DNA of 64,000 nt from Primulina eburnea (Eukaryota; Streptophyta; Magnoliopsida; Lamiales; Gesneriaceae), in NCBI RefSeq assembly GCF_022965805.1, contig NW_027331648.1, positions 310,001-374,000 of the forward strand. The letters are read 5' to 3'. Under the pieces are notes generated by a model. The model was not told where the DNA came from, made no database searches, and saw only the letters and a program-made list of their open reading frames with translations. This document shows positions 19,297 to 53,117 of the stretch, one piece after another. Numbering within the stretch: position 1 is the stretch's first letter; every line of letters starts with the position of its first letter. The position numbers were made by a program, and so were the translations under genes.

Positions 19297-19298
19297 AG

Positions 19299-25767: not shown

Positions 25768-26098
25768 TGTTGGAGAATTATACTGAAGCGATGCCGATCA
25801 CGATGATAATATAGTACCCAAAATTACGGAATAAAGTAACCAACAAGAACACAAAGATTTACGTGGTTCACCCAAGATAGGCTACGTCCACGGAGCTACT
25901 GCAGATCTTTTATAACAGGAGAAATATTACAACAAGTGTGCTTTGTAATTGCTTTGTTTGTAAATAGCCAATCAACTTTGACATTGGTGACATTGTTGTC
26001 AAATTGAATTCGTATTCTTCTGACATTTTCAATTCTTCTCACGTAAATGTTCACATCTCACCTAATAATGTTGACATCTCACCTAACATTTCTCCCAA
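25768..26098 (-). repeat. Copia-3 3' LTR with internal deletion
   Basis: At 331 bp it is about 160 bp shorter than its partner at 32866-33358. The missing part lies after the shared ATTACAACAAGTG at about 25942. The minus-strand tract TTTGGGAGAAA next to it is the polypurine tract. Confidence 0.9.
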
Positions 26099-29000: not shown

Positions 29001-30090
29001 TCAATTTTGGTACATGTCTGACTTTGTTGATTTTCCAGACAGATCCATTTGACATCTTCATCCGTACATCACCCATACCAACAATTTCCAAGGGTTTTTC
29101 AACCAGGAAAACTTTTTCGTAATCGTCAGCGATGTAATTATCAAATACATCGCGGTCACCAGTAGTATGAAACGAAGCTCCCGAGTCCATAACCCAAGAA
29201 TCAACAGGGCTTTCCATGGATAATAGTAGAGCATCATGTACTTCCTCAGTGACAGCATTGGCATTATTCTTCGTTGATCTGCAATTCTTTTTCAAGTGAC
29301 TAGTTTCACCACAGTTCCAACATTTCAAATTCTTTTCAAAGTTGCTTTTGTCTTTTCAATTTCTTGACTTGGACCTACCGCGCCATCGGTTAGAACTCTT
29401 TTCGCCACTCCTGCCCTTCCTCTGTTCTCAAGATTTAGAGCAGATCTCGATGATGTTTCTTCACCTGAATCCATCCTGCGAACTTCTTCAGCAAGAATTT
29501 GATCTCGGGCATCATTGAATTGTAGCTTTCTTTTTCCAACAGAGTTGCTAACCGCTGCCCGCATTGGTTTCCAATTATTTGGTAAAGACGCCAAAAAGAT
29601 AAGTGAACGAATCTCATCATCAAAATTTATTTCAACCGATGTTAGTTGAGAAACAATCGTGTTGAATTCATTGATTTGTTTAGCCACCGAAGCACCTTCT
29701 CCCATTTTCAAGTTGAATAACTTTTTCATGAGATGCACTTTGTTGTTTGCTGATGGCTTCTCGTACATGTCCGATAAAATGGACATCATCTCTTCTGTGG
29801 TTTGTGCCTCTGCCACGATATGTGTCACATTCTTCGTTAGGGTCAATCGTATCACACCTAACACATGTCGGTCAAGGTGCTTCCAATCATCATCCTCCAT
29901 CTTTTCCGGTTTCTTTCCTGATAGAGGTTGATGCAGCTTCTTACTATACAAATAATCTCTTATCTATAACCATCAGAACGAAAAATATGTTACGTCGAAC
30001 TTGTTGATTCTCGGTCCCGATCCATCATCTCTGGCCGTCACTTCTCTAGCCTTAGCAAAAAATCTAAAAAATCTTTTCTGATGTGGAAGA
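26099..30090 (-). pseudogene. Copia-3 gag-pol (broken)
   Basis: Gag is open at 29325-29951, but its first codons, near 29950-30060, contain stops. The frame changes next to the zinc knuckle CWNCGETSHLKKNC near 29290-29330. The protease motif SWVMDSGASFHTT follows near 29190, then pre-integrase YRLGHMSEKEM. Integrase continues at 28602-28138 with FIDDSSRKVWVYF, SDNGGEYEDDEF and GTPQQNGVAERMNRT. Reverse transcriptase lies at about 27560-26830 with LLLYVDDMLIAG intact. RNase H reaches 26175 with HCDSQSTIHLAKNPVYH and NPADMLTKI. Stops or shifts occur near 28610, 28140, 27500, 27265, 26820 and 26405. Confidence 0.92.
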
Positions 30091-30101
30091 TCATACAAAG
30101 C

Positions 30102-32799
30102 TGTAGAACCCAAAATAAGTATACGTAAAACCCGTGCATTTATTTAATTTGTTAAATTAGTTATTTAAGTTTAAAATGATTTTAGAGATGCATGATTTAT
30201 GAAATTGTATTATTTTAATTATTTATATTTATTTGATGCACGTTAAAATGTTTTCTCGAGTTTATATTTCAGGCGAATATTCGATAGGATCGAGGGAAAG
30301 AGACCGGAGACGATTTTGGCAATTTTAAAATGTGGTATTTTATTTTAAATCAAGAACATGACACTTTTAAATGATATATGAAGTTTTAATATTTTTCAAG
30401 CCTAATTTAAATACTAGGTGATTATAAAATTTTAAAATTTTAAAGTTTATCAATTTTGGATTTTATTTTAATTTGGGGATTTTAGTAAATTTATTTTTGG
30501 ATTAGAATTTTATTAACTTGTTAATTGGTTTAACATTTTAATTGGCATGATTAATTAATTAATTAATTAAACAAATATTTCCTTAATTAAAACACACACC
30601 ACACACATATATACACGTAAAGCACACACACACCATACACATATCTTTATTTTATTATGGAAGAGGAGAAGAGAAGTTTTCTTGAAACTCTCTTTCAGCA
30701 GCCTCCATATCACCACCTCCCTCTCCAAATTTCCTTCAACAATCCTTCGTTGATTTAGCAGCAAAAATCGTGCCTCAAGTCGCCCGGATCATTTCCCGCA
30801 CCATGTCGCTTCGATATTCACCGTATCGTGGGTTTTAAAGATCAAAGGCATGTATATTCTTTCGTTTTATGCATCGATCTTGTCATAATAGATATTTTGA
30901 TGTATGTTATGCGTGAAAGTTTGATTATTATGAGCAAAGTTTGAGCGATTATGCATTGAATCGATTTTTGAAGCATTGTATATCTCAAAAGACGTTTTTG
31001 CTGTCATTTAGGTTTCTGTGTAATTTCGGTTAGTTTTCTGAAAATATTTTCAACATAAAAAAACGTAGATCGTTTTGATACCTTCGATTTGATATAAAAT
31101 TCGTAATATTTGGAAAATAAACGAGTGAGTTATGATTTTTTTCGTGTGACTGCTCAAACCTGCGATCTTATGAAAATGATGTTCATCATGTTTTGAAGAT
31201 TTTGAGTTGTAGGCTTCGTTGGGCACCGCCGGTCTTGTGTTACTGTATTTAGATATGTTGTGAGATGTGTTTAGGTGTTATTTGGTGGTTCGTTTGGGTC
31301 GGGATTGGCTTGGGATATAATAGAAGTCGTATGAAGCAAAACGATGTCGAATTACGGGTTATTGTTGAATTGAAGTTGCTTGTCGATGTTTGGGGACGTT
31401 TGGGATGTTTTTACGGGTTTGAATCAAGGTACTAGCATCCTAGGATGAGTCTTGAGGTGTTGGTTCATGGTCCTTAGGCTTGGGTTGGAAGAATGAATCA
31501 TTAAGTTAGTGAATTTTCGTGAATTTTCATGTCCAGTATGTACCCGGAGCCCTTCCCGAACCTCGACACAGAGTCCGTGTCCTTTTTCCTTCAAAAATAT
31601 AAAACTTTCGTGCCTACCCGGACCCCTACACAGGGTCCGTGTACCCCCTTTAAAAAAAATTTAAATTTTTATTTTATTTTTTTTATGAATATAAAATGTA
31701 GGATTTGTGTTGTGGTTATGAATATAAAATATAGGATTTGGTTTGGGTTTGATGTCATGATTTAGTACGACGATTAAATGAGGTCAAGTCCCAAGAGATT
31801 TAAAACGTCATAAGGAAATTTATCATTTTTGGGTGTGAGTATGACTAATACGTCTAAGTTATGAAAGATAAGTGTTTGAACTCATGTTAGTACGTGCAAC
31901 AGTGGCCCAAGCGAGGTCCAACGAATCCCTCAACACCAAATAAGTATATTCGACGTTCAAAAGAAAATACTTTTAAGTTTTTGATGTATGCTAAATGTCT
32001 TGTGACCAAATTATGAATGGGTTTGGAAGTCGGTGAACGTGGCCGAGGACCTCTCCACCCCGATAAAGCATGAACGTGTGTAGATCAGGATTGGAAACCG
32101 TTAAAACATGAACTGAGACCAATCCACCCGTTAAAGCATGAACGGGGATCTCATGTATGTGGCAATGGATCTTCTCTGTCTGCCTAGTACCATGGTTTAG
32201 CCTGATCAGGCATATTTATGTATGGGTCACTTGCTTTGAAACATGCCTCTACGCAAAATGATGAAGTTTATGTATGTTCATGTATGTACATGTATGCAAG
32301 CATGTTTAAGTAAAATTTCACGTTATAGCACGTCTATGTATGTATGTAAGTTCAAGCTTTTATACACACCTTCAAGTTCAAGTATGTATATTCTATTTTA
32401 AAATTGCAGGTGATTTTATTACGTATTACTTGTTACTTCCAGTTTATACATGTTGAGTTTTTAGACTCACTAGACTTGATCGATGCAGGTGAGGATGAAT
32501 TTGAGGAGACGAGAGGTGAGGACCAATGAGCTGGCTTGGACTGAGCGGGAGGCTAAACCCGAGGACCGCCCATGTTTTTAAGTTTTTATGCAATGCTTCA
32601 ACTACTCTGATTTTTCGTTTTGGTTTACGATGTTTAAACAAGTATTTTTCTCTAGCAAACTTTATATGTGATCTATCTTATTGCAAATACTTTTGGTTGG
32701 ACAGTTTATTTATGATCACAATTTGAAAGTTTATTTTATATTTAAGAAAATTTTTATTTTTCCGCAAATTTCAAGTAGTTCAAAATACGGTATGTTACA
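30102..32799 (+). mobile_element. Solo LTR C, 2.7 kb, inserted in the Copia-3 leader
   Basis: It starts TGTAGAACCC and ends GTATGTTACA. The flanks AAAGC (30097-30101) and AAAGT (32800-32804) form a near-perfect target duplication. Removing it rejoins a leader like that of Copia-2 (CTCTGTGGTTGCA and CTTCCACATCAGAAAAGATT on the minus strand). No gag-pol lies inside. The 3' part shares TTTAGACTCACTAG and ACCCGAGGACCG with solo LTR B at 39639, so the two are related Gypsy-type LTRs. Confidence 0.85.
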
Positions 32800-32851
32800 A
32801 AAGTTGCAACCACAGAGCATACTCAGAATTCTTAAGAATTTTCACAACAAA

Positions 32852-32863
32852 GCTCTGATACCA
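32852..32863 (-). promoter_or_regulatory. Copia-3 primer binding site (initiator methionine tRNA)
   Basis: TGGTATCAGAGC on the minus strand, a few bases after the 5' LTR. The usual CA end of the LTR is changed to AA here. Confidence 0.9.
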
Positions 32864-32865
32864 GT

Positions 32866-33358
32866 TTTTGGGGAATTATACCGAAGCGATGCCGATCACG
32901 ATGATAATATAGTATCCAAAATTGTTGAATAAAGTAACCAACAAGAACACAAAGATATACGTGGTTCACCCAAGATATGCTACGTCCACGGAGCTACTGC
33001 AGATCTTTTATAACAGGAAAAATATTACAACAAGTGTATACAATAATACACTAAATATCTCACACTCCCAAACCGAGTATAACCAAAAAAAAATTTCTCT
33101 AACTCACACAAGAGAACAAAAAAAAACTCTCTTTTTTCTCTCTTATTTACAAAGCTTTGTAATTGCTTTGTTTGTTTTGGGATGATAAACTGAGATGGAT
33201 GGAGCTCTATTTAAGAGCTCCCCGTGCATGAAATTGCCAATCAACTTTGAAATTTGGGACATTGTTGGCAAATTGAATTCGTATTCTTTCGACATTTGCA
33301 ATTCATCTCACGTAAATGTTCACATCTCACCTAACAATGTTGACATCTCACCTAACAC
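32866..33358 (-). repeat. Copia-3 5' LTR
   Basis: The 493-bp LTR ends on the plus strand CACCTAACA at the CATAT duplication. A short T-rich and A-rich stretch with TTTAAGAGCTCC near 33211 may be its TATA region. It is the complete version of 25768-26098. Confidence 0.9.
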
Positions 33359-33480
33359 ATATAATGATTAAAACATCCGACTAGAGTATATTCTGATAGA
33401 GAATCAAGTCGCTGACATATTCACTACGTCATTACTTAATGCTAAGTTTTATTTGTTTATTTATATTCTTCGCAAGTAGG
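33359..33480 (+). pseudogene. Old Copia relic, RNase H C-terminus right of Copia-3
   Basis: The plus frame reads RLEYILIENQVADIFTTSL and ends at a TAG about 33478. This matches the Copia RNase H tail (ENQxADIFTKxL). With the piece at 25716-25767 it shows that Copia-3 split an older element's RNase H. Confidence 0.8.
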
Positions 33481-33968
33481 TTTAAATTAATTCATAAATT
33501 TAGTCAGAACAAAAGTCGAGCTAATAAAACAATATTTCAAGCACAACTCTGACCGCTCTGGTTAGAGTTTATGAAAACTTGACTTCATAACATGTTTTGA
33601 CTTTTCCCTTTTGAAACAAATTAAAAGGTACAATTTAATGTATTTTTATTATTTCAAATTTTGAATTTTTTTTGTTTTCGTATTTATTGATCTAATAGTT
33701 ATTATATAATTTTAAATAGCTTTTTTTACTTGGATATATCAATCGTCAAAATTCAGTTTCCGACTTTTCAAATTTTCAAATTTTAACTGAAATACAGACA
33801 CGTGGAGTGTCATGCCTATCAAATCGGATTGTATATATCTTTATTGTTTAACATATTTTATTAATTGCAATCACTTAAACAACTCTCTGCATTCTATATA
33901 CATTCCTAGTTTCTTGCACTCTAACCACTTTTCATATCAACTCAATCTGCTCACTTCAAAATCATGAA
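33481..33968 (+). promoter_or_regulatory. Promoter-like leader of the extra ORF in the old Copia relic
   Basis: The stretch between the pol end and the extra ORF contains a G-box CACGTG at 33799-33804 and a TATA-like TATATAT at 33832-33838. The ORF's first usable ATG follows about 130 bp later. This layout would suit a separate transcript for the downstream ORF, which is inference only. Confidence 0.35.
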
Positions 33969-35876
33969 ATGACAAGTTACTCCAAAAACACTCTTGTTTT
34001 TCACTTCGAGTCAATTCTTGCCATGAAATAAGTTTCCATGGTCAATATGTTCAGGATACTCGAAGCCACTGAGTTAAAAAAAATTCTTGGGTTTCAGCAC
34101 TAGGGTGGTTTTTTAACCAGTGCCAGATGAACCATTTGAAACACAGATTGAACACGATCGTTGATATGTACCATTCAAGGATCAAACCTCTGTACCAGCC
34201 AAAAGCTGTTTGCAGAGACGTTTAGTCTACTAACAATCGGCCTAAGTGCATTTTCGGGCTTCTAGAAGGCAATTATGCACATTGAAGTATCGAATTCTCT
34301 CTATCTGGTTCACCTATTTCTTTCCCAAACTACCTGAAGAAATACCTCAAAGTGGAGTATATGCTACTTGAAGATATTGTGTGCGAACCACAATTAGCCA
34401 ATGCTGGAGTTTTTGACAAGACAATCACTGAAAATTTTATGGCCATGGCAACCATCACTTCTACTCAATGTAAACTGAACTTAAATACTCTACAATATTT
34501 TAATAGCCATGGTGAGGAAGGAAAATTAATTGGCCAGATTTTTCATCCCTCTGTGATATTTATTAGAACAACAGTCTGAGTGGGGTAAATGTTGTTGAAA
34601 TATAGGAATTTTCCACACAGTCTAGGCTACCATCAATTGATCCCAAGGCCAAGGGAATTTTTATCGATCCGAGAAAGTTGTATAATGTTCAAGCTACAAT
34701 AAATCTGGTGATGCATCATGTCAGTGAGATTGCTAAGGAAAGAATGGGGATTTTTAACACATGGATTGACTACATAATAGTGGTTCACTTTGATGTTATT
34801 GGGAAGAAAATGAGATTGAAAGCTGTTGCATAGATGGAGCAAACAAATTTGACATGGACTGAAAATGATCTTATCCTCAAAGCTCTCCAACTTTAAGACT
34901 TTATTGAAATGGAGTTGAGGGAGAATGTGCTCAGAAAATTCATTAAGGAAAAGAGAGCACATATCAACCTCCACAGCCCAACGGCGAGAGATGGGTCTTC
35001 ATTGATCAACTAGTTAGATATGGATTCCTTTACCAATTTCGATGATTGTTAGAGTCAAGAGGCCAGAGTATGAACTCCAAGAAATTGTTGAAGATATTTT
35101 GACTTAAGATGGACTATATCTGATGAGGAGTCAAGAGTCTAAGATTGCAGAATAATAGACTAGTATTCCTGCTGATAAGCACCAAAATGAATAAATGGAG
35201 ATACCCACTGAAAAAACTCAAGACGGAGCCCCATCAGCTCTGGCCGTTGGGAATTATAATGTGGGAAAAATTCCTGAAATTCAAGCTGCTGGTGAAAGAA
35301 CAACTCAGGTTGGTGGTCGGGTTGACCAATCTGAGTCATTTATTTCCTCATTTGAAAATGTTTTGGATCAACCCACTCAAACCCCCATCACTGTAAGTCA
35401 CAGAAGCACTTTTATCTCCTCCACCAACTGAAGTTCAAACCGGAGATCTCTTGGAGAAGCCATTAATCTCTTTGGATGAAGTGGTCTGCTCTTTGTCCTA
35501 GTTTGAATTTGATCAGTCCAAGATGGATCCTTACTATCATATGCATCAAGATCCAATTTTTGAGAAAGAGGAATTCTATGACGAGGATTAACTCAAAATT
35601 GATCCAATGTCAACCACTCCAATTGGAGCACCTGGCAAGAGATGAGATTATTTTTCCAAAAAAATGGACAACGAGGAGATGGTGATTCACAAAGCTTTTA
35701 TCTCAGAAGGTGAGCAGGTCCATCTGGGACTACAATTTATGGAAAATGTGGTTGAGTTGCTTCCCAACCAGAGTCAAGTTTCTGAAGTTGCGATCCCATC
35801 AATCACTACTCCAACCGCTAAATCTACACCAGAAATTCATGAGGACTTTCTTTTTAAATCCAACCGGTGGAGAAGT
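33969..35876 (+). pseudogene. Extra ORF downstream of pol in the old Copia relic (5' part, decayed)
   Basis: It begins MTSYSKNTLVFHFESILAMK and then a stop. In the next stretch it reads SMVNMFRILEATELKKILGF, and near 34340-34480 VEYMLLEDIVCEP and VFDKTITENFMAMATI. Frames and stops change often. The pattern resembles an unnamed family of plant hypothetical proteins that I recall from Dorcoceras hygrometricum and its relatives. Its place after RNase H is the position of env-like ORFs in SIRE-type Copia elements. I see no signal peptide or clear membrane anchor in the remnants, so no function is proposed. The ORF is cut at 35876 by solo LTR A and resumes at 49277. Confidence 0.6.
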
Positions 35877-36036
35877 TGTAAAGACCTCGTATCGTATTAT
35901 CGTAAATCCTATGTTGATTATCGATAAATCATGAAATTGATATGCTATTAAGTGTATGGTGTATATTGGTACAATGGAGAGAAAATATGTGGTAATAACG
36001 AAAGATTGTATTAGAAATTGATTTGTAGTTGAATGA
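35877..36036 (+). mobile_element. Solo LTR A, first part (interrupted)
   Basis: It starts TGTAAAGACCTCG and parallels the opening of the Tekay-like LTR read on its own strand (TGTAAGGACCGTG, CGTAAATCTTATGTGATTATCG). After 160 bp it is broken by the Gypsy element at 36037. The rest follows at 47419-49276. Confidence 0.85.
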
Positions 36037-37828
36037 TGTGGGGCCCTTAGCTCCTAATCGTTATTACAATGCAATCTGATTAGGGTTAATTAATCATAGC
36101 GGAAAACGAGTTTAAATTTTCTTTACAATGAGCCCAAGTCATTTTATTGTAATACTAAAAATAGTATCTCATCTCACGTCATAATCATGCCCACGCGCAA
36201 TCACAACCAATCACATACAAACATCTCATATCTTTGGGACATGCCCCGGTATATAGATACATATACATATACACTGGGAACAAGACATAAATCTAAAACC
36301 TCAGCCCAAGCTGTGGCTCCCTCCAGAAGTACCCTCTCCGGTCTCCTGATATCCTGGAATACGTGCCATTGTCCACACACAAAGACAACAACAGCCCCCC
36401 CTTGGGGGTGAGCAAAGCTCCGTATGGAACAACCAATCATATATACCACAGATATCTAAACAATGATATATGGTATGCAATGCATGTATGTCGTGGAGGT
36501 ATCAGATCAAATGCTCATCCACTGAGCACATGTCAGAATCAATCGAATCGCTATCAAATCAAATCAATGCTCGAGCTGGCACACCGGCCGATATTGGAAT
36601 ACACGTATGATAGCATCGACGAAGCGCCATCAATCCCACATCTCATATCCAATCATATGGGGCCACAATTGTCTATGCTTTACGGGTCATATAATACCGG
36701 CATAGCGATTGTGTTCACAAACCCCGGAATCCAATCCAATCATATCAAAGTATCCAAGGATCATAGCTCAACGTGCATGTCATGTATCGATGTATGCATA
36801 AAATGATGTGTGTTAACAAAACATTTATTTTATACATCGATATCTCAATCTCAATGTCATGTATGCCACATCAAATCATCAAATAGGCACATAGACACAC
36901 ATTCTCAATCCAATCAATCAAATCAATTCAACATATATCATATAATACAGATACATGTCGTATGTTACCCGGTCGCAACATACCTCAATTCTTTGTTTCC
37001 AGTTGATGTAGTTTGAAGATATCAGTATAATACTTTATCTACATCAATAACATACTCATTCCAATCAATAACATATTCCAAAATCATTAATATGAGTTTC
37101 AAATATCATTTGAAACTTCAATAATTCATATCAAATTCAAATCATATCATAATTCAATTCCGACTTCGAATATGAGTTTCTTGTCGGTTATTCTACTACA
37201 TATCAGAAATTCAACTTCAAATACATGCTATTCCAGCACTTTGATATTTCAAGCTGCTGGAACTAGAAGAAAATTACCTCAGTCTGAAGCTCTCGACGCG
37301 ACGATCACAAATATATAATTTGTTTCGTGTTTAGACAGCGTTTCGAAGTCGATTTAGAAGAAAGAAATCAGAATTTTCTCGACTTTCTCGTAGGTGTGAA
37401 ATGATAAAATGAATAAAACGAACGGCAAAACATTCTTATCTTTCCACCGCTCTCGCGCTCGGGCGGTAGAATTCTCGCGCCCGAGCGCGAGACATTCTGT
37501 CCCCGAGTTGCATTTATGCCGCGCTCGGGCGGTAGAAAGTTACCGCTCGGGCGCGGAACATTCTGCCTGAACCCCTGGCAATTTCAACCCTGGCGCTCGG
37601 GCGTTAATTTCCTACCGCTCGGGCGCCACATGTTCTGTACAAAATATCAATTTTGTACTATATTGGCGTCCGGCCTCTCCACTCGAGCTCTTACAACGTC
37701 AATTCATATTCAATACTCATTTCTCAATTCATTGTCACGATATACATCAAATATGTAATCACATGACAATTTCATTAATTATCGATAATCACATAAGATT
37801 TACGATAACAGGGTACACGGTCCTTACA
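36037..37828 (-). repeat. Tekay-like element 3' LTR
   Basis: The plus strand starts TGTGGGGCCC and ends GTCCTTACA. By hand alignment it differs from the partner LTR by about 29 single bases and no indels. A GC-rich block at 37449-37625 has repeated CGCTCGGGCG units. Confidence 0.94.
37449..37625. repeat. GC-rich CGCTCGGGCG repeat cluster in the LTR
   Basis: Several copies of CGCTCGGGCG in direct and inverted order, for example GCGCTCGGGCG and CGCCCGAGCGC facing each other near 37449-37483. The same cluster recurs in the other LTR (47039-47213) and, worn, in solo LTR A (47771-47870). Confidence 0.85.
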
Positions 37829-37842
37829 TTTCTCCCTCTCTT
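37829..37842 (-). promoter_or_regulatory. Tekay-like element polypurine tract
   Basis: The minus strand reads AAGAGAGGGAGAAA directly before the 3' LTR. Confidence 0.9.
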
Positions 37843-37959
37843 AAAAGATTTCGTCTTCGAAATCTCAAACATCCCTATATACATAACATTGGCAAACATA
37901 CATATGTCACCAGTTATAACACATATCAAAACTAAAATCAGAATAAGGATCAGAATACA

Positions 37960-39638
37960 TCGAATACAATGGAACAGATGGATTAGCATCAAATAAATGA
38001 GGATACAAATCTCGCATCTTGCTCTCCAATTCCCATGTCGATTCTTCTACACCATGCCGTGTCTATTGTACTCGAACTAAAGGGATCGATTTATTTTTCA
38101 ATATCTTTTCCTTTCGATCCATAATGCGAACATGTTGTTCAACATAGGAAAGAAAAGGATCAAGTTCAACCTCATCAGGTGCAAGCACATGTGATGGATC
38201 TGGTTCATATTTCCTCAGCATAGAAACATGAAACACATCGTGAATCGCAGATAGAGCTGGTGGCAATGCCAATCGATACGCAAGATCACCAACTCGATCG
38301 AGAATCTCGTATGGACCAACATAACGAGGAGATAATTTCCCTCGCATGCCAAATCGAATAGTGCCTCTAAAGGGGGATATCTTCAAAAACACTCTGTCGC
38401 CTTTCTGGAATTCCAAGGGTCGTCTTCGTTTATTCGCATAACTTGTTTGACGATCCTGAGCAGCTTTCATCCGCTGCCGAATTAACTGAACCTTATCTTT
38501 CATTTCCTGTATCATTTCAGGTCCAATCAATTGTCTCTCACCAATCTCATCCCAGAATAACGGTGATCTACATCGTCTCCCATATAGAGCTTCAAACGGT
38601 GCCATACCGATACTCGTCTGAAAGCTATTATTATACGAAAATTCAACCAATGGTAAGGCATCTTGCCATCCCATTCTAAAGTCCATCACAATTGCACGCA
38701 ACGTATCTTCCAACGTTTGAATCGTACGCTCAGTTTGGCCATCAATTTGAGGATGATAAGCAGTACTCATAGCCAAACGCGTACTCATCGCTTCCTGAAA
38801 ACTACCCCAGAATTTAGAAGCAAACCTGGGATCACGATCAGATACAATTGAGACTGGCACACCATGCAATCTCACAACATTCTCAATGTATAAACGGGCC
38901 ATTCTCTTATAGGCATAAGTCCGCTCATACGGAATAAAATGCGCAGATTTTGAAAGCCGATCAATAATCACCCAAATAGCATCACAGCCCTTGGGCGAAC
39001 GAGGTAAATGAGTCACAAAATCCATAGCAATATGCTCCCAATTCCACTTCGAGATTTCAAGAATATGGAGCAATCCTCCAGGTTTCATTCTCTCGGCTTT
39101 CACTTGCTGGCAGACCAAGCATTTAGAAATAAACTCAGCAATGTCCTTCTTCATACGTTTCCACCAGAATTGAGGTCTCAATGTCAAATACATTTTTCGG
39201 CCTCCAGGGTGAATACTGTATTTGCTACAATGTGCTTCTCGAAGAAGGGCAGATTTCAAATCAGAGTCGTCAGGAACTACCAGCCGACCATTAAGTCGTA
39301 AAGAACCATCAGAAGAAATCTGAAATCCAGACTGATGTCCAGCAGATACAAGTTCTTTCGACTTTTGGATCTGAGCATCGCTTCGTTGGGCCTTTCGTAT
39401 TTTCGATATCAAATTCGGCTCAATTTGCAATGCTGAGACAGTGACAGAATTCCAATTCGAGTGAAATTCCAACCAGAAGTACATATATCCTCGTGTACTT
39501 TGGCGACATTGACAGAAGCTAGAACAGAATCATGAACTTTACGGCTCAGGGCATCCGCAGTAACATTCACCGATCCAGGGTGATATTGAATCTCACAATC
39601 AAATTCCTTCAGGAGATCCATCCACCTGCGTTGCCTCA
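37960..39638 (-). pseudogene. Tekay-like element: end of RNase H, integrase and chromodomain-like tail
   Basis: From 39638 the frame reads QRRWMDLLKEFDCEIQYHPG and ADALSRKV (end of RNase H). A frameshift near 39430 leads into a long open frame down to 38063. That frame has the integrase zinc finger (CLVCQQVK), the DDE core with MDFVTHLPRS, SDRDPRFASKFW and STAYHPQIDGQTERT, and a Gypsy-type module ending SMLRKYEPDPSHV. After an in-frame TAG at 38060-38062 the sequence still reads HGVEESTWELESKMRDLYPH, a worn chromodomain-like tail. Confidence 0.93.
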
Positions 39639-42600
39639 TGTAATGCTACGAAAATTTAAAGGTCCACGCAAACCACATGCATATAAGTTATTAAATTCTT
39701 TTGTATTTCAATTAATTGTTTTAATTACATGGATTAATTTTGCGGTGCATAATTACATGCTTAAAATATATTTTCTACATGATTGCATTAAAAATGTATT
39801 TTTAAAATGTTATTCGAGTTGCGATCGATGAAGGGAGACCGAGGGCTGAAAAAATAGAAAATATTTTTATTAAATAATTGTTCTTAATTATTTAAAATAA
39901 GGGTGGTTATTTTTCTTATTTTTAAAAATATGGGGTTTTGAGGTGATTTTATACGTCGGAACGTAATTTTTATCGGTGTTGGTTTTTCAACAAAAATACG
40001 GATGTTTTGACAACCCGGCTAATAAATTCACAAACTTATTTTACCAAAACTATTTTTATATTTTAATTAAATCCTAATCAAACACTAATGGGCCTAAACT
40101 TATGCTTAATAGGCCTAAAGCCTTAATTAGTGAATTGATTAATATATAATATGTAATCCCTTACTAAAACCCTTCACTTTGCATCAAAACTCACGGCCAC
40201 CCTCTTTTAAAAATCTAAAACTCTCCCCACCCCATTCTTCAAGACACGAACACACATACACAACAAAGTAGAAGAAATTTTCGGTGGAAGCTTAAGAAAA
40301 AGGTTCAAAGCCAAGGTCTTCTCGTCCATTCTTTGCAAATCGTCAACGGGTTTTTCGTGCGTAAATTACGCAAAGGCACGCCTATTCTTTCTTTAAAAAA
40401 AAAACCATCATCACACCATAGTATTTTAATTATTGAATTTTTGCATGAAAACAAGTCACACAATTCACAATTTCGTAACTATGCTCATGCTTGTGTTTAA
40501 ACCTTTGTTATTGGATTCAAATCATGTTTATATGATGTTTAAGGGGCTGCCATGAACTAGGATATGAATAAGCATGTATTTACACAAGTTTAAAGGCCTA
40601 GAATCACACACAATAGCAACAAAAACACTGCACAAAAACAGAAAAAACAAAACTGGTATGACTTTGCTGTCATGGGAGACGAGGGGCTCGGCTTTGTGAG
40701 TTGGGTTGCTTGGCTTGGTTCCAGGGCTAGCCAGGGCCGTGGGGGAGTCAAGGGTAGGGTCTTAATAATGCTAGGGTTTGAGTTAAGTGGGCTGGGAGGA
40801 GTCCTTGTTGGGAAGGACACCACCCGATCGAGAACCACATCAAGGGGGCTGCGTGAGTTTCAATAGCTGTTGCAGGGGGAAAGGATTGGCCAGGGGCTTT
40901 GGGGCGAACCAGGCTAGGTCCTTACTCCTTAGGGTCCTAGGATGATGGGCATGGGTCGGACCAGGGGCTGGGACAGACGGGTTGGCTGCTGGTCCAAGAA
41001 ACGAGAGGAAAGTGCATGGCAGCAAGCTGGGGCGTGAGGTGCTGTCAAGCTGCAGGGGTTCGCTGCTCGGGTCTGGGGGCTTGGGTTGGTCTGGGCAGGG
41101 TCTGGGCATGGTCCAGGGAGGGTTAGGTGCATGAGAGGTCGAGTGGTTCACAGCTGGTTGAGTCCTAGTCCAATTAGGAGTCCTAATGCAACTAGGAGAC
41201 ACACTTGTACACATGCATGCACTTGGGTCCAGGGGCTTAATCACGGGCCAGGAGCTGGTTCTTAGGCTTGGGGATGGTCAGTAGGGTTCATAGATGGGTT
41301 GTCTAGGGTTTGGCTCAGGGTGGCTCGGGCGTGGCTCGAGAAAATTAGGAGATGGCTCGGTGTGTTCGATAAGGTGTCAAAAACGAAAATAATAAAACAA
41401 AAATTAAATCCAAGGGTCCACGGGGGTGGCTAACAACTTGGAAGGGTAGAATAAATCTTAAAAATGCTATGTTTAAAATTTGGGATCAAAATAACGAGTT
41501 TTGGATTTATTCGGGATTTAATCGTCGCACGAAACGCTAATTAACGAGTTAATTGAAACGCCTAGTTTTAAGCTTTATAAAATTATGAAAAATTATATTT
41601 AAGCTTAAATAATTATTAGAAGTCTAAGTTTTTAGTTTGGGAATTTTATATTAAGGTTTGGTTTAATTCGGGATTAAAACGCATTAATACGTCACATTTA
41701 AAGATTAAATTAAAAGTCATCGATTTATGCCAAATAAAAATATATAAAAATTCATGTAAGGTTAAATAATTATTTGGGACATGTTAGAGTCAATGAAATT
41801 AAGAAAATGTCAAAAACGTGAAATTTTACGTCCAGGGGTAAATCGGTCTTTTTACATCTAAAAATTATTAAACGTCATGGCAGTGCCCGAAATGCTGTTT
41901 TATGTGCTAATATGATTATTTTCAATGGTTATGGATGTTTATGGGGTTTTATATGATTATTTTAAATGTTGATGGAATTTTATATATTTAGGGATTTTTA
42001 TGAAGAAAGATTTATTTCAAATGTTTATGATTTAAAATGTTAAAATGTTATTTTAAATGTTCATGGTTATTTATATGTTAAAATGTTATTTTTAAACGTT
42101 TATGGATTTTATGGTTTAATTATGGACATTTAAAAGCTATGTTGCATGCTTGGTTTAAAAGAAAAACGTTATACGCATGTTTAATTTTTTTTAAAGTGAT
42201 GAGAATATGAAACGTTGAAGGAAGTGAAGTAATTGTGACTAATACGATGATATGTTGGAAATTTCGTGAGGGTTATGGTCCCAGTGGGAGCATGACGATC
42301 GTGTTTCATTGGATACGGATATGTAGATGTATACGATGATATGTTAATACGTAAGGCCAAGGCCCAGTTGACGGGTGAGAGTTTCGCTGGTATCCCCGCC
42401 GCCCAGTACTGTGGTTACATGTAGATGGATCCATCGTCCAACATGTAGACGTAGACGTAGATGAACACGAAAATCACAATTAACGATCTGAATTCAACGA
42501 AAGTAAAAAGGAATGCGTATGTTGATGATAATATGAATATGAATATGTTGATGATGATATGATTAAGTTTACGAAAATGTTATTGTTTAAAGTTTTATGC

Positions 42601-43161
42601 ATCATGAAAATATTTACGAAAATATGTATGTTTATGCATCTTCATGAAAACGATATTTTAAGTACAAGTATTTTTCACTGTTATATGTTAATTGTATTAC
42701 GTATTACTCGTTATAAAGAATATGACGTGTTGAGTCTTTAGACTCACTAGGTGTGATTGATGCAGGTTATATTGATTATGAATATGATAATGGAGGTCTT
42801 GATGGTTGACTTGACTGGACTGAAGGTGCACATAACCCGAGGACCGACGCTAGTTTTCCGCACTAGTTATGATTTATGATTTTAAGTAATGTTAAAAATA
42901 TTTTTACGTCTTTTATTTATGTTATGAGAGATTTTTGAGAGGTTATAGTATGAGCTATACTTTTCAAATAATGTTTTTAGGTTGGTAAAATGTTTGCTGA
43001 TTTTATGCTTTAAAATATTTTCCTTTGGATTTTTAAATGGCAGTTGGATGTTTATTTTTAAAATGAGGTCAAAAATATTTTATGGTTCGGCCGATGCTAA
43101 GTGAGGTTTTAAAAAAAAAAATCTAGTACTTTTTTAAGAAAACGAATAAGCAGACGTTTCA
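39639..43161 (+). mobile_element. Solo LTR B, 3.5 kb, inserted in the Tekay-like RNase H
   Basis: It starts TGTAATGCTACG and ends CAGACGTTTCA. Perfect target duplications CCTCA lie at 39634-39638 and 43162-43166. Removing it restores the RNase H reading LNMRQRRWM on the minus strand. It has no gag-pol. A GC-rich stretch at 40670-41340 holds chance open frames. Its 3' part resembles solo LTR C. Confidence 0.93.
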
Positions 43162-44470
43162 CCTCATATTCAAATCAGATTGAGAAAAGAGATACTTCAG
43201 GCTCTTATGGTCCGAATAGATAACAAACTTTTCTCCGTACAAATAATGACGCCAAATCTTCAAAGCGAACACAATGGCGGCCAATTCGAGATCATGAACA
43301 GGATAACGTGTTTCATGAGATTTCAATTGACGAGACGCATAAGCAACCACTTTGCCATGTTGCATCAAAACACAGCCCAAACCTTTACCCGACGCATCTG
43401 TACATACCACAAATCCTCCGGTACCTGAGGGAATAGTAAGCACAGGTGCAGTGGTCAATCTCGTCTTCAATTCAAGAAAACTAGCTTCACATTCATCTGA
43501 CCAAATGAATCGATGATTCTTCTGTGTCAGTTGAGTAATAGGTTTAGCTATCTTCGAAAATCCTTCAATAAAACGACGATAATATCCCGCTAAACCCATG
43601 AAGCTACGGATCTCAGGAACATTCGTAGGTCTTGGCCAATTCAATACAGCTTCGACCTTCGCAGGATCAACAGATATGCCATGTCTTGAAATGACGTGGC
43701 CCAGAAATACCACTTTGTCCATCCAGAACTCGCATTTGGACAATTTGGCATACAAATGACTAGTACGAAGAGTTTGAAGTACCAGTCTCAGATGTTAAGC
43801 ATGCTCCTTCTTCGATTTCAAATATACAAGAATATCATCAACACAAACAATAACGAATCGGTCTAGATAATCTCTGAAGACACGATTCATTAAGTCCATA
43901 AAAATAGCAGGAGCATTCGTGAGACCAAAAGGCATAACCAAGAATTCATAGTGGCCATACCTCGTACGAAAAGCAGTTTTGGGCACATCTTCGTCTCGAA
44001 CTCGTACTTTATGATATCCAGAACGAAGATCAATCTTCGAGTAAACAGAAGTACCCTGAAGCTGATCAAATAAATCATCAATACGCGAAAGTGGGTACTT
44101 GTTCTTCACAGTAGCCCGATTCAGTTGCCTATAGTCAATACACATTCGCATCGTACCATCTTTCTTTCGAACAAATAAAACTGGAGCTCCCCAGGTGATA
44201 CACTCGGTCGAATATATCCCTTATCGAGAAGATCCTGTAATTGTTCTTTCAATTCTTTCAATTCCAATGGTGCCATGCGATAGGGAGCTTTAGATATAGG
44301 TGCAGTCCCCGTCACAAGATCAATACTAAACTCAACTTCTCGATGAGGGGGAAAATCAGGAATCTCATCGGGAAATACATCCGGGAATTCTTTCGCAACT
44401 GGAATCTCAGATAAAGAAGACTCCTTCTTCGAAATATCAATAGCGTAGATAAGATAGCCCTCATCTCCGC
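43162..44470 (-). pseudogene. Tekay-like element reverse transcriptase and RNase H (broken)
   Basis: The N-terminal part reads EFPDVFPDEIPDFPPHREVE and KAPYRMAPLELKELKEQ (44400-44240). After a frameshift near 44190, reverse transcriptase reads [34 protein letters not shown] and the catalytic VCVDDILVY (44150-43820). A stop near 43795 precedes [20 protein letters not shown] and [10 protein letters not shown]. RNase H reads [17 protein letters not shown] and [13 protein letters not shown]. It is interrupted at 43161 by solo LTR B. Confidence 0.93.
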
Positions 44471-45409
44471 TAGTCAACAAATCGAGACATTTCCAAAGAG
44501 GATACTAATTGAATTTTGGCTTGGGAACCCTTGCCATAAAAATTCCACTTGGGTCCATCAATCGGTCGAAATCGAACCACTCCATGACAACAATCAACAG
44601 TAGCTCGATTTGTCGTCAAGATATCCATGTCAACAATACAATCAAAGTCGTGTATAGGAAGGACAATCAAATTCAGAAATACCACATTATCCTCATAGAT
44701 CAGTACACAATTATGCACAACTTTCTCAGACAAAATAATCTTTCCTGCTTCTGAGTCGCAGGGAAGGTTGCTGAGCTGACACTTAAGGTGGAGGAGTATA
44801 TTGTGGACCTCCTCGCCTTAATCCAGCTTCGGCTGCCTTAGCTCGTTCAACTGCCTCTGCATAGCTGGTAGGCAATCCAGAAACAACATATGTATACAAA
44901 GCAGGATCTAATCCATTCACAAACCTGTCATATTTTGCCTTCGCATTCCCAGCTACGCGAGGTGCGTACTTCAACAACGTAGAAAACTTTGAAGCATACT
45001 CTGCAACAGTCATCGTTCCCTGCTGCAGACTATTGAATTCATTCTCTTGGGCAGTATAATAAGAAGGAGGGGAATACTGCTCCAAAAACTGGGCCTTGAA
45101 GACATCCCATGTGACTTCAGTCCCGGCCTCTTTCAATCCAATCTCAGCGGCTTCCCACCAAGATTTAGCTCGGTCCTTCAACTGATAGAGAGCAAGTTTC
45201 AGTCTCCGAGCCTTGGAATATTCAACAATATTAAACAAATGCTCGATATCCTTCAGCCAAGCCTCAGCTCTTTCATCACTCTCAGTGCCAAAGAACTTCG
45301 GTGGTTTTAGATCCTGGAATCGAGCCATCACAACATCCATGGACAACCCTTCAAATTGCCCAACAATCCTCTCAGTACTGCTACTCGCAGTTTCATTTGT
45401 GTGATCCAT
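44470..45409 (-). pseudogene. Tekay-like element gag and protease remnant with deleted junction
   Basis: Gag is open from 45409 (MDHTNETASSSTERIVGQFE) for 208 codons and holds the retrotransposon gag domain (AEAWLKDIEHLF, WDVFKAQFLEQY, NGLDPALYTY). It stops at 44783. The following frame, 44733-44470, holds only the end of the protease region (FDCIVDMDILTTNRATVDC). The CCHC zinc knuckle and the catalytic DTG/DSG of the protease are missing, so a deletion of a few hundred bases is likely here. Confidence 0.88.
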
Positions 45410-45604
45410 CTACAAATCAAAAGAAGAATATCACAATTCAATATCAATTTCATAATCTCATCACCTCATATCATCAATCTCATCAAATACTTACTCAAAT
45501 CAAATCACATAAGAGCAAGTAATACAAATAAGTCAAACACATACGCACAATTCATTTGTGCCTATTCAAGTGTACACAAGACTCAATCGAGCATTCCCAC
45601 CTAT

Positions 45605-45616
45605 GCTCTGATACCA
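45605..45616 (-). promoter_or_regulatory. Tekay-like element primer binding site (initiator methionine tRNA)
   Basis: TGGTATCAGAGC on the minus strand, five bases after the 5' LTR end. Confidence 0.92.
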
Positions 45617-45621
45617 TCTTG

Positions 45622-47413
45622 TGTGGGGCCCTTAGCTCCTAATCGTTATTACAATGCAATCTGATTAGGGTTAATTAATCACAGCGGAAAACGAGTTTAA
45701 ATTTTCTTTACAATGAGCCCAAGTCATTTTATTTTAATACTAAAAATAGTATCTCATCTCACGTCATAATCATGCCCACACGCAATCACAACCAATCACA
45801 TACAAACATCTCATATCCTCGGGACATGCCCCGGTATATAGATACATATACATATACACTGGGAACAAGACATAAATCTAAAACCTCAGCCCAAGTTGTG
45901 GCTCCCTCCAGAAGTACCCTCTCCGGTCTCCTGATATCCTAGAATACCTGCCATTGTCCACACACAAAGACAACAACAGCCCCCCCTTGGGGGTGAGCAA
46001 AGCTCCGTATGGAACAACCAATCATATATACCACAGATATCTAAACAATGATATATGGTATGCAACGCATGTATGTCGTGGAGGTATCAGGTCAAATGCC
46101 CATCCACTGAGCACATGTCAGAATCAATCGAATCGCTATCAAATCAAATCAATGCTCGAGCTGGCACACCGGCCGATATTGGAATACACGTATGATAACA
46201 TCGACGAAGCGCCATCAATCCCACATCTCATATCCAATCATATGGGGCCACAATTGTCTATGCTTTACGGGTCATATAATACCGGCATAGCGATTGTGTT
46301 CACAAACCCCGGAATCCAATCCAATCATATCAAGGTATCCAAGGATCATAGCTCAACGTGCATGTCATGTATCGATGTATGCATAAAATGATGTGTGTTA
46401 ACAAAACATTTATTTTATACATCGATATCTCAATCTCAATGTCATGTATGCCACATCAAATCATCAAATAGGCACATAGACACACATTCTCAATCCAATC
46501 AATCAAATCAATTCAACGTATATCATATAATACAGATACCTATCGTATGTTACCCGGTCGCAACATACCTCAATTCTTTGTTTCCAGTTGATGTAGTTTG
46601 AAGATATCAGTATAATACTTTATCTACATCAATAACATACTCATTCCAATCAATAACATATTCCAAAATCATTAATATGAGTTTCAAATATCATTTGAAA
46701 CTTCAATAATTCATATCAAATTCAAATCATATCATAATTCAATTCCGACTTCGAATATGAGTTTCTTGTCGGTTATTCTACTACATATCAGAAATTCAAC
46801 TTCAAATACATGCTATTCCAGCACTTTGATATTTCAAGCTGCTGGAACTAGAAGAAAATTACCTCAGTCTGAAGCTCTCGACGCGACGATCACAAATATA
46901 TAATTTGTTTCGTGTTTAGACAGCGTTTCGAAGTCGGTTTAGAAGAAAGAAATCAGAATTCTCTCGACTTTCTCGTAGGTGTAAAATGATAAAATGAATA
47001 AAACGAATGGCAAAACATTCTTATCTTTCCACCGCTCTCGCGCTCGGGCGGTAGAATTCTCGCGCCCGAGCGCAAGACATTCTGTCCCCGAGTTGCATTT
47101 ATGCCGCGCTCGGGCAGTAGAAAGTTACCGCTCGGGCGCGGAACATTCTGCCCGAACCCCTGGCAATTTCAACCCTGGCGCTCGGGCGGTAATTTCCTAC
47201 CGCTCGGGCGCCACATGTTCTGTACAAAATATCAATTTTGTACTAAATTGGCGTCCGGCCTCTCCACTTGAGCTCTTACAACGTCAATTCATATTCAATA
47301 CTCATTTCTCAATTCATTGTCACGATATACATCAAATACGTAATCACATGACAATTTCATTAATTATCGATAATCACATAAGATTTACGAGAACACGGTA
47401 CACGGTCCTTACA
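45622..47413 (-). repeat. Tekay-like element 5' LTR
   Basis: Exactly as long as its partner (1,792 bp). The plus strand starts TGTGGGGCCC and ends GTCCTTACA at the AATGA duplication. Confidence 0.94.
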
Positions 47414-49276
47414 AATGATGTGCTGAACCGCAATAGAAAAGTGATACATTTTATGGTTTTCAACATAATTATTAGAGTATTAGTCCAAATGAACTGAAAC
47501 CAATTTCATTGGGAATCTAATACATAGTACTAAAACTTTCATGTTTTGGGTTTTGTCCAAATCTATTTAGAAATAGGGGCAAAATCATCCCGAAGTGTAA
47601 CGTGTGAATTGCACTTTTTGCACTGATACATTTTGAGAGAATGAGCTTAACTCTCGCGTACGATATCCAAATTGAGTGAGGTTGGTGGCAAATGAAAATC
47701 AAGATATAGATCTACAACTTGCATGTTGACCACTTTTGTTCATATGGAACCTAGAATGTTGGACAGAACACCTCGCGCTCGAGTTGGGACATTTTACCAC
47801 CCGAGCGCGGAAAAATTCGCATTGGGGGACAGAACGTCTCGCTCTAGAGCACGAGATGTTACTGCCTGAGCATGAAACCGACATTGGTTAGGTGATAAGA
47901 ACAATGTTATTGTACAATATTTATTTATTTTTCTTACCGCAACTTCGAGAGAAGACGAGAGAAACTGGATTTCTATCGTACGAAATCACCTCGACACGCT
48001 ATTTGAACTTGAAACAAATTATATATTCGGAATCATCGCGTCGAGATGGTTCTTTTGAGATAAGTTGCTTCTAGTTTCAACACCTCTATTTATTGAAATG
48101 CTGGAATATCATGTTTTTGAAGTCAAGATTCATATATGTGGTAGAATAACCGACAAGAAACTAAGTTTTGAAGTCGGAATTGAATTATGTTATGATTTCG
48201 ATTTGATATGAATTTCCAAAGTTTCAAAAGATATTTGAAACTTATATTGTTGAATTTGAATGAAATTATTGATTGAAATGAATGTGTTATTGATGTAGAT
48301 AGAGTTTCTATACTGAAATCTTCAAGCTACATCGACTGGAAACGAAGAATTGATGTATGTTGCAATCGAGTAACATATGACATGTATCTGTATCATATGA
48401 TATATGTTTGATTGATTTGATTGAGAATATGTGTCTATATGCCTTATTCGTTGAGTTGATGTGGTATAGACATTATGATTGGATTATCGATGTATAAAAT
48501 AAATATTTTTTCAACTCACATTATTTGCTACATACATCGATACATGACATGCACGTTGAGCTATGGTCATTGGATACCCTGATATGATTGGATTTGATTC
48601 TGAGATTTGTGAACATGTTGCTATGTTTGGCATTATGTGGCCCTTAAATCATAGTCATTTGTGGCCCCGATGATTGATTGAGATTTGGAATTTGATAGCG
48701 CTTTGTCGATGCTGTCATACGGGTATCCCTGATTGAGGCCGGTGTGCCAGCTCAAGCATTGATTTGATAGTGATCCGATTGATTCCAATATATGCTCAAT
48801 GGATGGGCATTTGACTTGATGTCTCCACGACTTACTTGCATTGCATATCATATATCATTTTGTAGATATATGTTGTATATATAATGGTTGTTCCTTACGG
48901 AGCTTTGATCACCCCCAAGGGGGTGTTGTTGTTGTCTTTGTGTGTGGACAATGACATATACATCAGGTTATCAGGAGACCGGAGATGGTACTTTTGGAGG
49001 GTCTCACGATTGATTTGATGTTTAATGGTCTATTTCAACATATATGTATATGTATCTATATACCGGGTCATGTTCTGAGGATATGAATTGTTTGTATGTA
49101 GTTGGTTTTGATTATGTGTGGGAATATTTTATGATGTGAGATAAAATACTATTTTAAATATTCAAATAATATATTTTGGGCTCATTGTAAAGAAAATCTA
49201 AACACTTTTTCCGCTGTAATTAATTAACCCTAATCAAATTACATTGTAATAACAATTAAGAGTTAAGGACCCCACA
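47414..49276 (+). mobile_element. Solo LTR A, second part
   Basis: This continues 35877-36036; the first five bases are the duplicated AATGA. It reads in the opposite direction to the Tekay-like LTRs and ends TAAGGACCCCACA. Its outer flanks GAAGT (35872-35876) and GAAAT (49277-49281) form a near-perfect target duplication. It is clearly more diverged than the two Tekay-like LTRs are from each other. Confidence 0.87.
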
Positions 49277-49889
49277 GAAATGATCGTTCTCTGCTTTCAC
49301 TACCTCATCCAACCCTCTTGATTTGTTAAAGCATGGACCTTCAACATCACAAAGCATTCAACTCTCAAAACATTAAGAACAAGAGATTGAAGATCCATTT
49401 TCAAAACAAGTGCTGGATAAGTTGCATACTATCTCTCAGTCCATCAGCTCTGTGGAAATCAAGCACTTTGCTCACATAGTGGCATTAAAAAATTTCAAAG
49501 ACCAAATTCTTAAGGAATTGAATTCCATTGGGATGCAATGCCTCACACATCCTGTTGTTCATGTCAAAATGAAGCGTTAAAAAGTCAATATGAATTGTGA
49601 ACTATCCGGACAGATGATCTAACTAAAGAATCATATGGATCAGTGGATGGATCACATTCAAACAACCCTTGGTAGCCAGCTTCGGGAAATACTTGAATAT
49701 ATGCAGCGTGGTGATGTCAAAAAGGTGGAAGGCGTGAATTACAAAAATCTTGAAGAGAGGAAAATACGGACTGAGAGAGAAAAATATGAAGAATCTAAAC
49801 AAACCGATGAAAAAGAAGGAAAGAAGAAAAATCTATAAGAATAAAAGAGGTGGAAGCAGTGGCGGCTCAACTTCAATTTTCTATAGATA
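49277..49889 (+). pseudogene. Extra ORF of the old Copia relic (3' part)
   Basis: After solo LTR A, a charged, helix-prone region resumes. It includes MDQWMDHIQTTLGSQLREIL at 49635, then YMQRGDVKKVEG and a lysine- and glutamate-rich tail ending 49838. In another frame the next bases read KRGGSSGGSTSIFYR and a stop. A charged tail with a glycine-serine end is what I remember for the same hypothetical protein family. Several stops precede 49635. No function is assigned. Confidence 0.55.
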
Positions 49890-51712: not shown

Positions 51713-51714
51713 AG

Positions 51715-51729
51715 TGGTATCAGAGCCTT
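51715..51729 (+). promoter_or_regulatory. Copia-4 primer binding site (initiator methionine tRNA)
   Basis: TGGTATCAGAGCC two bases after the LTR. Confidence 0.92.
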
Positions 51730-53110: not shown

Positions 53111-53117
53111 CGGGCAT

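What the first reader, a model, noticed from the sequence alone, without database searches (positions are those of the whole stretch)
33481..49889. An extra ORF with its own promoter-like leader downstream of a Copia pol gene
After the RNase H stop there is a leader with a G-box and TATA-like box, then a long ORF (about 2.5 kb once the nested insertions are removed) ending in a charged, glycine- and serine-rich tail. Its pieces resemble an unnamed family that I recall as abundant hypothetical proteins in Dorcoceras. The position is that of env-like genes in SIRE elements, yet I see no envelope-like features. This is the best candidate in the window for an undescribed element-borne function.
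Basis: partly seen in the sequence, partly recalled or inferred. Interest (0 to 1): 0.75.

Follow-up and report, generated by a model that had tools for sequence, protein, structure and literature searches.

The report
Decayed extra gene of a Copia retrotransposon
The window holds a broken copy of an extra, non-envelope-looking gene that sits behind the polymerase gene of a common plant Copia retrotransposon and seems to have had its own promoter; the kind of gene is known, its job is not.

Summary
A Copia RNase H end (33372-33476) is followed by a leader and about 2.5 kb of coding-like DNA (33969-35876 and 49282-49889), interrupted by a solo LTR that itself contains a Gypsy element. It is not an open ORF: no + strand piece exceeds 97 codons. 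Period-3 signal (z 8.2 and 5.8) shows its coding past. The window's own genome settled the main point: in 20 of 25 fetched relatives, Copia RT-RNase H lies just upstream on the same strand. In two younger elements a homologous ORF lies between pol and the 3' LTR. Pol and ORF thus belong to one element. The first domain is probably a divergent Transposase_32 (PF20167; 6 of 11 copies, best E 4.6e-7, all below Pfam's cut-off). No membrane segment was seen. It evolved under constraint (median dN/dS 0.14). Before window-type ORFs a G-box-like motif recurs in 17 of 22 leaders, 13 of them with a TATA-like box at a fixed spacing. This is a SIRE-like 3' extra ORF, a known kind, with a concrete internal-promoter candidate. 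Transcription and function are untested.

The parts
25712..25767 (+). Remnant of Copia RNase H left of the minus-strand Copia insertion
   Evidence: tblastn of the relative's RT-RNase H protein, residues 374-391, 61%, E 2.4e-5; the same DNA is alike in L015, L037 and L042 just before their leaders
25768..33357 (-). Minus-strand Copia inserted in the RNase H stretch (interrupts the feature, does not belong to it)
   Evidence: LTRs 93.8% alike over 320 aligned bases, flanked by CATAT on both sides
33363..33479 (+). End of Copia RNase H with its stop codon
33480..33968 (+). Leader between pol and the extra ORF, stops in all frames
   Evidence: No period-3 signal; alike at 66-76% in other loci
33799..33804 (+). 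G-box CACGTG, about 165-170 bp before the ORF
33832..33838 (+). TATA-like box TATATAT
33969..35876 (+). Decayed extra ORF, first part (N-terminal and middle regions)
   Evidence: Period-3 z 8.2; protein similarity to L011-L018, L021, L022
35877..36036 (+). Left part of a solo LTR inserted in the ORF (last 5 bases are the Gypsy target site)
   Evidence: Target sites GAAGT/GAAAT; one duplicate locus without Gypsy
36037..47413 (-). Gypsy element nested in the solo LTR (not part of the feature)
   Evidence: LTRs 1763 of 1792 identical, target site AATGA on both sides
47414..49276 (+). Second copy of the AATGA target site (47414-47418) and right part of the solo LTR (47419-49276)
49282..49889 (+). 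Decayed extra ORF, last part with charged C-terminal region
   Evidence: Period-3 z 5.8 for 49280-49889; protein similarity to L011, L012, L017, L021, L022
50021..51232 (+). Probable 3' LTR of the same element
   Evidence: 69% alike to L011 over its length; pieces recur before gag in L020 and after the ORF in L021

Best explanation
The stretch is a dead copy of a SIRE-like Copia retrotransposon that carries an extra sense ORF between pol and the 3' LTR. Shown here: the ORF belongs to the element, and in younger relatives its sequence was under purifying selection. Probable from sequence: a divergent Transposase_32 N-terminal domain, then a basic KRKL-containing stretch, a middle part and a C-terminal coiled-coil-like region, without a membrane segment; so an intracellular, possibly nuclear, oligomeric protein rather than an envelope. 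Inferred: it was made from its own mRNA started at an internal promoter (G-box about 165 bp and, in window-type copies, a TATA-like box about 135 bp before the ORF), because a leader of 0.5-1.3 kb with stops in all frames rules out simple read-through from pol. Most likely role (inferred, weakest step): a nuclear accessory factor of the element, for example in bringing its cDNA to chromatin or in countering silencing.
For: RT-RNase H on the same strand just upstream of leader or ORF in 20 of 25 window-type loci (background 4 of 39 tiles) and within 4.3 kb in 9 of 12 A-type copies. Two elements with LTR pairs (94.3% and 96.8%) and 5-bp target-site copies enclose gag, integrase, RT-RNase H and ORF in order. 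Period-3 signal. dN/dS 0.138 (0.078-0.214) for the N-part of E1 and E2, beside 0.083-0.138 for RT, RNase H and integrase; median 0.139 over 51 defined of 55 pairs. Transposase_32 in 6 of 11 N-parts, best E 4.6e-7. G-box: 11 of 12 A-type rows at 155-174 bp before the ORF match; 17 of 22 window-type rows, 13 with TATA-like box, against 0 of 104 control tiles with both. Hydropathy at most 1.55 over 19 residues, 0-1 cysteines in 7 pieces.
Against: No transcript evidence. TATA-like box in only 2 of 12 A-type copies. Transposase_32 stays below Pfam's cut-off (30.3 of 45 bits at best) and 5 of 11 N-parts do not match. Three A-type copies show no pol within 4.3 kb. The nuclear signal is a motif read by eye; the coiled coil rests on a crude heptad count without control. 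The copies compared share descent, and all nine A-type copies taken were picked among those without internal stops. A branch-point-like CTAAC before the ORF keeps splicing possible.
Confidence: 0.6

Rival explanations
1. The ORF is an envelope-like gene in the retroviral sense, as proposed for SIRE1: a membrane protein for transfer between cells.
For: Same position as the ENV-like gene of Sireviruses; such genes are described as sharing coiled-coil and transmembrane domains (PMC3414828, passages); a coiled-coil-like region is present.
Against: No 19-residue stretch above hydropathy 1.55 and 0-1 cysteines in the 7 A-type pieces, at most 1.39 in the window pieces; no dedicated transmembrane or signal-peptide predictor was available, and the missing or frameshifted parts were not examined.
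Confidence: 0.1
2. The ORF is made from a spliced RNA started in the LTR, as predicted for some Gypsy elements, and the G-box serves something else, for example as an enhancer for the LTR.
For: Splice acceptor sites were predicted for BAGY2 and Athila (PMC2829016, section 20). A TAAC (CTAAC in 6 of 8 rows) is conserved shortly before the ORF. A-type copies mostly lack a TATA-like box.
Against: G-box and TATA-like box keep a spacing of 34-39 bp in 13 window-type rows, as expected of a core promoter; no splice-site analysis was run.
Confidence: 0.25
3. Pol end and ORF come from different insertions that happen to be neighbours.
For: In the window only about 55 codons of pol remain, broken by a Copia insertion and next to a caulimovirid-like fragment.
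Against: The same RNase H, leader and ORF order recurs in 20 of 25 loci and inside two LTR pairs.
Confidence: 0.02
4. The ORF is a captured host gene or passenger without function for the element.
For: Function unknown; many copies are broken.
Against: Low dN/dS among diverged copies and at least thousands of first-look candidates for it in the genome (6700, only 121 scored) suggest that it was kept while the element multiplied.
Confidence: 0.1

Closest known systems
SIRE-lineage (Sirevirus) 3' sense extra ORF, eORF-3'F or ENV-like gene (PMC6317226, PMC2829016, PMC3414828; passages)
   Same: Sense ORF between Copia pol and 3' LTR; element of 11.2-11.5 kb with LTRs of about 1 kb; coiled-coil-like part; A-ending PPT variant next to the 3' LTR in E2, as in ToRTL1 and Tnd-1; palindromic motif upstream of the ORF.
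   Different: No transmembrane segment seen; upstream palindrome is a G-box instead of the CGG-CCG repeats; the exact octamer AGGGGGAG is absent in E1 and E2; lineage not tested against named references.
SIRE1 of soybean, ORF expressed by stop-codon suppression (as reported in PMC2829016, section 20; original paper not read)
   Same: Same position in a Copia element.
   Different: In SIRE1 pol and ORF are separated by a stop codon only; here 0.49 kb (window) to about 1.25 kb (E1) of multiply stopped leader lies between.
Transposase_32 (PF20167), and the sunflower Athila (Gypsy) 3' ORF with partial similarity to it and an RGGKRKL nuclear signal (PMC11728184, passages)
   Same: N-terminal domain matches nearly the whole profile in 6 of 11 copies; KRKL motif behind it in E1, E2 and L046.
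   Different: All matches are below Pfam's cut-off; host element is Copia, not Gypsy; the Pfam name reflects annotation, no transposase activity is implied.

Membership tests
SIRE lineage / Sirevirus | Sense extra ORF between pol and 3' LTR | tested here: met
   E1 and E2, LTR to LTR. Known for 74% of SIRE elements, so typical but not required.
SIRE lineage / Sirevirus | Octamer AGGGGGAG 10 bp before the 3' LTR and in several linker copies | tested here: inconclusive
   AGGGGGAG absent in E1 and E2. E2 has AGGGGGAA-AT-TG exactly there, the A variant of ToRTL1 and Tnd-1; E1's is altered. Further linker copies: 2 in E2, 1 in E1.
SIRE lineage / Sirevirus | Placement of RT in a tree with named SIRE elements | not testable with these tools
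   No named plant retroelement references were held.
SIRE lineage / Sirevirus | Copia order gag, integrase, RT-RNase H | tested here: met
   Pfam gag_pre-integrs, rve, RVT_2 (5.1e-56) in E1 in that order. This defines Copia, not SIRE.
ENV-like protein of Sireviruses | Transmembrane domain | tested here: not met
   No 19-residue window above 1.55 in 7 A-type pieces or above 1.39 in the window pieces; hydropathy only.
ENV-like protein of Sireviruses | Coiled coil | tested here: inconclusive
   Heptad contrast 0.64 (E1) and 0.70 (E2) in the C-terminal pieces, highest of 7 pieces; crude measure without control.
Transposase_32 (PF20167) | Pfam gathering score of 45 bits | tested here: not met
   Best 30.3 bits (L050).
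Transposase_32 (PF20167) | Significant match over the domain's length | tested here: met
   6 of 11 N-parts, E 4.6e-7 to 0.0019, profile positions about 9-166 of 177; 5 of 11 without match.
SIRE1-type expression | ORF fused to pol by one suppressed stop codon | tested here: not met
   Many stops in all frames of the leader in E1 and E2 and in the window.
Internal promoter | Capped 5' ends in the leader | not testable with these tools
   No transcript data held.

The most novel reading that the evidence does not exclude
A highly amplified Copia lineage carries a second transcription unit: an internal ACGT/G-box promoter between pol and the 3' LTR that makes a separate mRNA for a nuclear, non-envelope, Transposase_32-type coiled-coil protein. 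It would be the internal promoter that was hypothesised for Sirevirus ENV-like genes and not conclusively identified, and it would put this protein under control of its own, apart from the LTR.
Probability: 0.4. Interest if true: 0.72.

Novelty: new variant of a known kind. Interest (0 to 1): 0.5.

Why it matters
PMC6317226 (passages) raises the question whether SIRE extra ORFs have any function, because their proteins fall into 19 groups with little or no similarity. PMC2829016 (section 20) reports that an internal promoter for the ENV-like gene was hypothesised but could not be identified conclusively. Here one such ORF family shows purifying selection and sits behind a positionally conserved G-box, with a TATA-like box in the window type. 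Both questions become directly testable in a genome where the first look gave 6700 candidates for the ORF, of which the 121 scored all matched.

Tried and rejected
Three protein-database searches with pieces of the window ORF found nothing (116, 24 and 37 candidates, none within the E-value limit). I ran no positive control for plant proteins in that database, so this says little. Viral contigs: none for two pieces. Pfam on the window pieces: none beyond chance; PurS at E 0.0054 shows what chance can give.

Single-sequence AlphaFold2 of two window pieces: mean pLDDT 40 for the 97-aa piece; 80 for the 75-aa piece, one long helix. Uninformative for function; no fold search was run.

PDB search with E1's N-part: a 25-residue resemblance to TAL-repeat chains (E 1.4e-6 at best), rejected as chance because no stretch passed on its own.

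An apparent second copy at 425-532 of the window (E 0.012) was not supported by the neighbouring frames.

An 18-bp match between leader and downstream DNA (33936-33953, 50176-50193) was equalled by 2% of shuffles; comparing 10 leaders with 6 LTRs gave four scattered hits at E 0.009-0.03. Not used.

Exchange of the ORF between pol lineages: between E1 and E2 the share of synonymous differences is higher in ORF N-part and gag (0.68, 0.67) than in RT (0.42; ORF against RT Fisher p 1.7e-7), but third-position composition differs, and the RNase H data do not reject the ORF tree (AU p 0.29, while the ORF data reject the RNase H tree; 7 copies). Left as a lead.

A Boea retroelement paper (PMC4031123, passages) concerns other nested elements.

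Full report
What is in the window. The last codons of a Copia RNase H end at a stop at 33477-33479. A relative's RT-RNase H protein from the same genome matches 33375-33470 (56%, E 2.7e-4) and, on the other side of an inserted minus-strand Copia (25768-33357, target site CATAT), 25712-25765 (61%, E 2.4e-5). So about 55 codons of pol remain. Further left lies a minus-strand fragment with weak caulimovirid-type hits (RT_RNaseH_2 E 2.1e-6, Peptidase_A3 E 0.0028). After the stop comes a leader of 0.49 kb, then a coding-like stretch from an ATG at 33969 to 35876, continued at 49282-49889. The gap is a solo LTR (35877-36036 and 47419-49276, target sites GAAGT/GAAAT) split by a Gypsy element (36037-47413, target site AATGA, LTRs 98.4% identical). 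A duplicate of this locus on another contig (L009, L010; pieces 92-98% identical) has the solo LTR without the Gypsy and a single AATGA there, plus about 0.4 kb extra elsewhere in it, which confirms the nesting.

Is the ORF real? Not as an open frame: no + strand piece exceeds 97 aa, and 23% of 300 shuffles reach that. But period-3 composition is strong in both parts (z 8.2 and 5.8), as in the RT stretch of the Gypsy element (7.6), and absent in the leader (-1.2) and in 49890-51283 (-0.02). It is a decayed coding sequence. It also lacks about 370-410 bp that L012 and L013 have between the N-terminal and middle parts.

Do pol and ORF belong together? The window lies in an 812-Mb genome. The stretch 33481-34480 has 45 matches there. 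I fetched 25 places related to leader or ORF (L009, L011, L012, L013, L015, L017, L018, L020 and L029-L045); other matches were not fetched. RT-RNase H on the same strand lies just upstream of leader or ORF in 20 of 25 (L009 with its tail only; L044 without a detectable leader). L043 and L045 have only an integrase piece; L030, L031 and L036 show none. For comparison, 4 of 39 1.6-kb tiles of the window hold such a hit on the + strand. Two younger elements on contig C2 are decisive: E1 (38421255-38432754, LTRs 94.3% identical, target site GTTAG) and E2 (minus strand, 10247655-10258886, LTRs 96.8%, target site TCACT). Each has gag, integrase, RT-RNase H and a homologous ORF in order between its LTRs. 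Their ORF (called A-type here) and the window's (B-type) are related: E1's N-part matches the window at E 1.1e-4 and L012 at 5e-11. Of 12 A-type places (E1, E2, E3 in L028, L046/L047, L048-L055), 9 have RT-RNase H upstream; L046/L047, L049 and L052 show none within about 4.3 kb, though they keep the leader. The stretch 50021-51232 is probably the window element's 3' LTR, since pieces of it recur before gag in L020 and after the ORF in L021.

How common, how intact? A search with E1's N-part gave 6700 first-look candidates; only 121 were scored, and all matched at E below 1e-123, 62-100% identical (E1 itself included), with open frames up to 853 aa. One that I read is open for 738 codons and then continues out of frame (L046). 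So long open copies exist; I verified no complete one.

Was the protein useful? Between E1 and E2 the N-part (327 codons) has dN/dS 0.138 (bootstrap 0.078-0.214), beside RT 0.083, RNase H 0.092 and integrase 0.138. The C-part gives 0.237 (0.124-0.429), and the middle part is saturated at silent sites. Over 11 copies (nine taken, all listed there without an internal stop, plus E1 and E2) 51 of 55 pairs give a defined value, median 0.139, range 0.096-0.525; the 6 closest pairs have a median of 0.38, as expected if copies decay after insertion. Distant pairs are near saturation at silent sites, so exact values are rough.

What is it? 6 of 11 N-parts match Pfam Transposase_32 over nearly the whole profile (E 4.6e-7 to 0.0019) but below the curated cut-off; the other 5 do not. 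Behind it comes a basic stretch (KRKLIV in E1 and L046, KRKLIL in E2), a middle part and, at the C-terminus, the strongest heptad pattern of the seven pieces measured. Hydropathy over 19 residues stays at or below 1.55, with 0-1 cysteines in each of the seven pieces (window pieces at most 1.39). A sunflower Athila (Gypsy) 3' ORF has partial Transposase_32 similarity and an RGGKRKL nuclear signal (PMC11728184, passages). This fits an intracellular, perhaps nuclear protein better than an envelope. The nuclear role is inference.

Promoter. In the window CACGTG lies at 33799 and TATATAT at 33832. Across 23 aligned window-type rows (the window and its duplicate included) the hexamer is CACGTG in 5, CACATG or CATGTG (one CpG transition) in 6, and further changed in 12. 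In 22 rows (L009 and L017 left out) a G-box-like motif with up to 4 mismatches in 14 was found in 17, though in L039 the match taken lies elsewhere in the leader. 13 of the 17 have a TATA-like box starting 34-39 bp after the motif's first base. Of 104 control tiles of the window 12 have the motif and none has both. In A-type copies GACACGTGTCC with up to 2 mismatches lies 155-174 bp before the ORF match in 11 of 12, with CACGTG exact in 5. The best-conserved 11 columns of the last 230 bp are a second ACGT box (CACACGTACAC, 0.98), followed by the G-box region (0.93), against a mean of 0.70. A TATA-like box follows in only 2 of 12 A-type copies. These copies share descent, so conservation relative to the flanks and the fixed spacing, not raw counts, carry the argument. 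Read-through from pol, as reported for SIRE1, is not possible across a leader with stops in all frames.

Known and new. Sense ORFs 3' of pol occur in 74% of SIRE elements and fall into 19 groups with little or no similarity, function unknown (PMC6317226, passages). An internal promoter for the Sirevirus ENV-like gene was hypothesised in 2002; PMC2829016 found palindromic repeats upstream of ENV but could not identify a promoter conclusively (passages and section 20). The word G-box does not occur in that paper. My library searches for Sirevirus with internal promoter and G-box and for PF20167 listed no paper that, from title, abstract or the passages I saw, describes this combination; the library is open-access only. 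Hence: a new variant of a known kind. The name Dorcoceras for related proteins is recalled, not tested; that the lineage is SIRE rests on structure, on the A-variant PPT of E2 and on recalled RT motifs, not on a tree.

Noticed in passing
23832-25707 (minus strand): Fragment with weak caulimovirid-type hits (RT_RNaseH_2 E 2.1e-6, RVT_1 E 0.006 and 0.036, Peptidase_A3 E 0.0028), inside the old Copia RNase H stretch: possibly an endogenous pararetrovirus remnant.
   Followed up: partly
L009, L010 (C14:4948000-4967999): Near-identical duplicate of this locus that lacks the Gypsy: an earlier segmental copy or the other haplotype.
   Followed up: partly
L011, L012, L026 (C11:31.28-31.31 Mb): Tandem-like copies of RT-RNase H, leader, ORF and downstream part, about 6 kb apart and 93-95% alike.
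   Followed up: no
A-type leaders, 433-461 bp before the ORF match: AGGGGGAA, the octamer that also stands next to E2's 3' LTR, occurs there in 10 of 12 copies (not L050, E3): a conserved internal polypurine tract.
   Followed up: partly
C2:38419167-38434900 (L018, L019, L022): The young element E1 appears to sit inside an older window-type copy of the same kind of ORF.
   Followed up: partly
E1 and E2: Synonymous divergence is higher in gag and the extra ORF than in integrase and RT; possible exchange of pol between elements, not proven.
   Followed up: partly
18852-23657 and 51284-56186: Two related Copia elements about 90% alike; the first has a 3' LTR cut short at 23657.
   Followed up: no
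50638-50707 and 62889-62960: 79% similarity over about 72 bp (E 1.6e-10); the second copy's context was not examined.
   Followed up: no
63365-63711: Tandem array of about 51-bp units.
   Followed up: no
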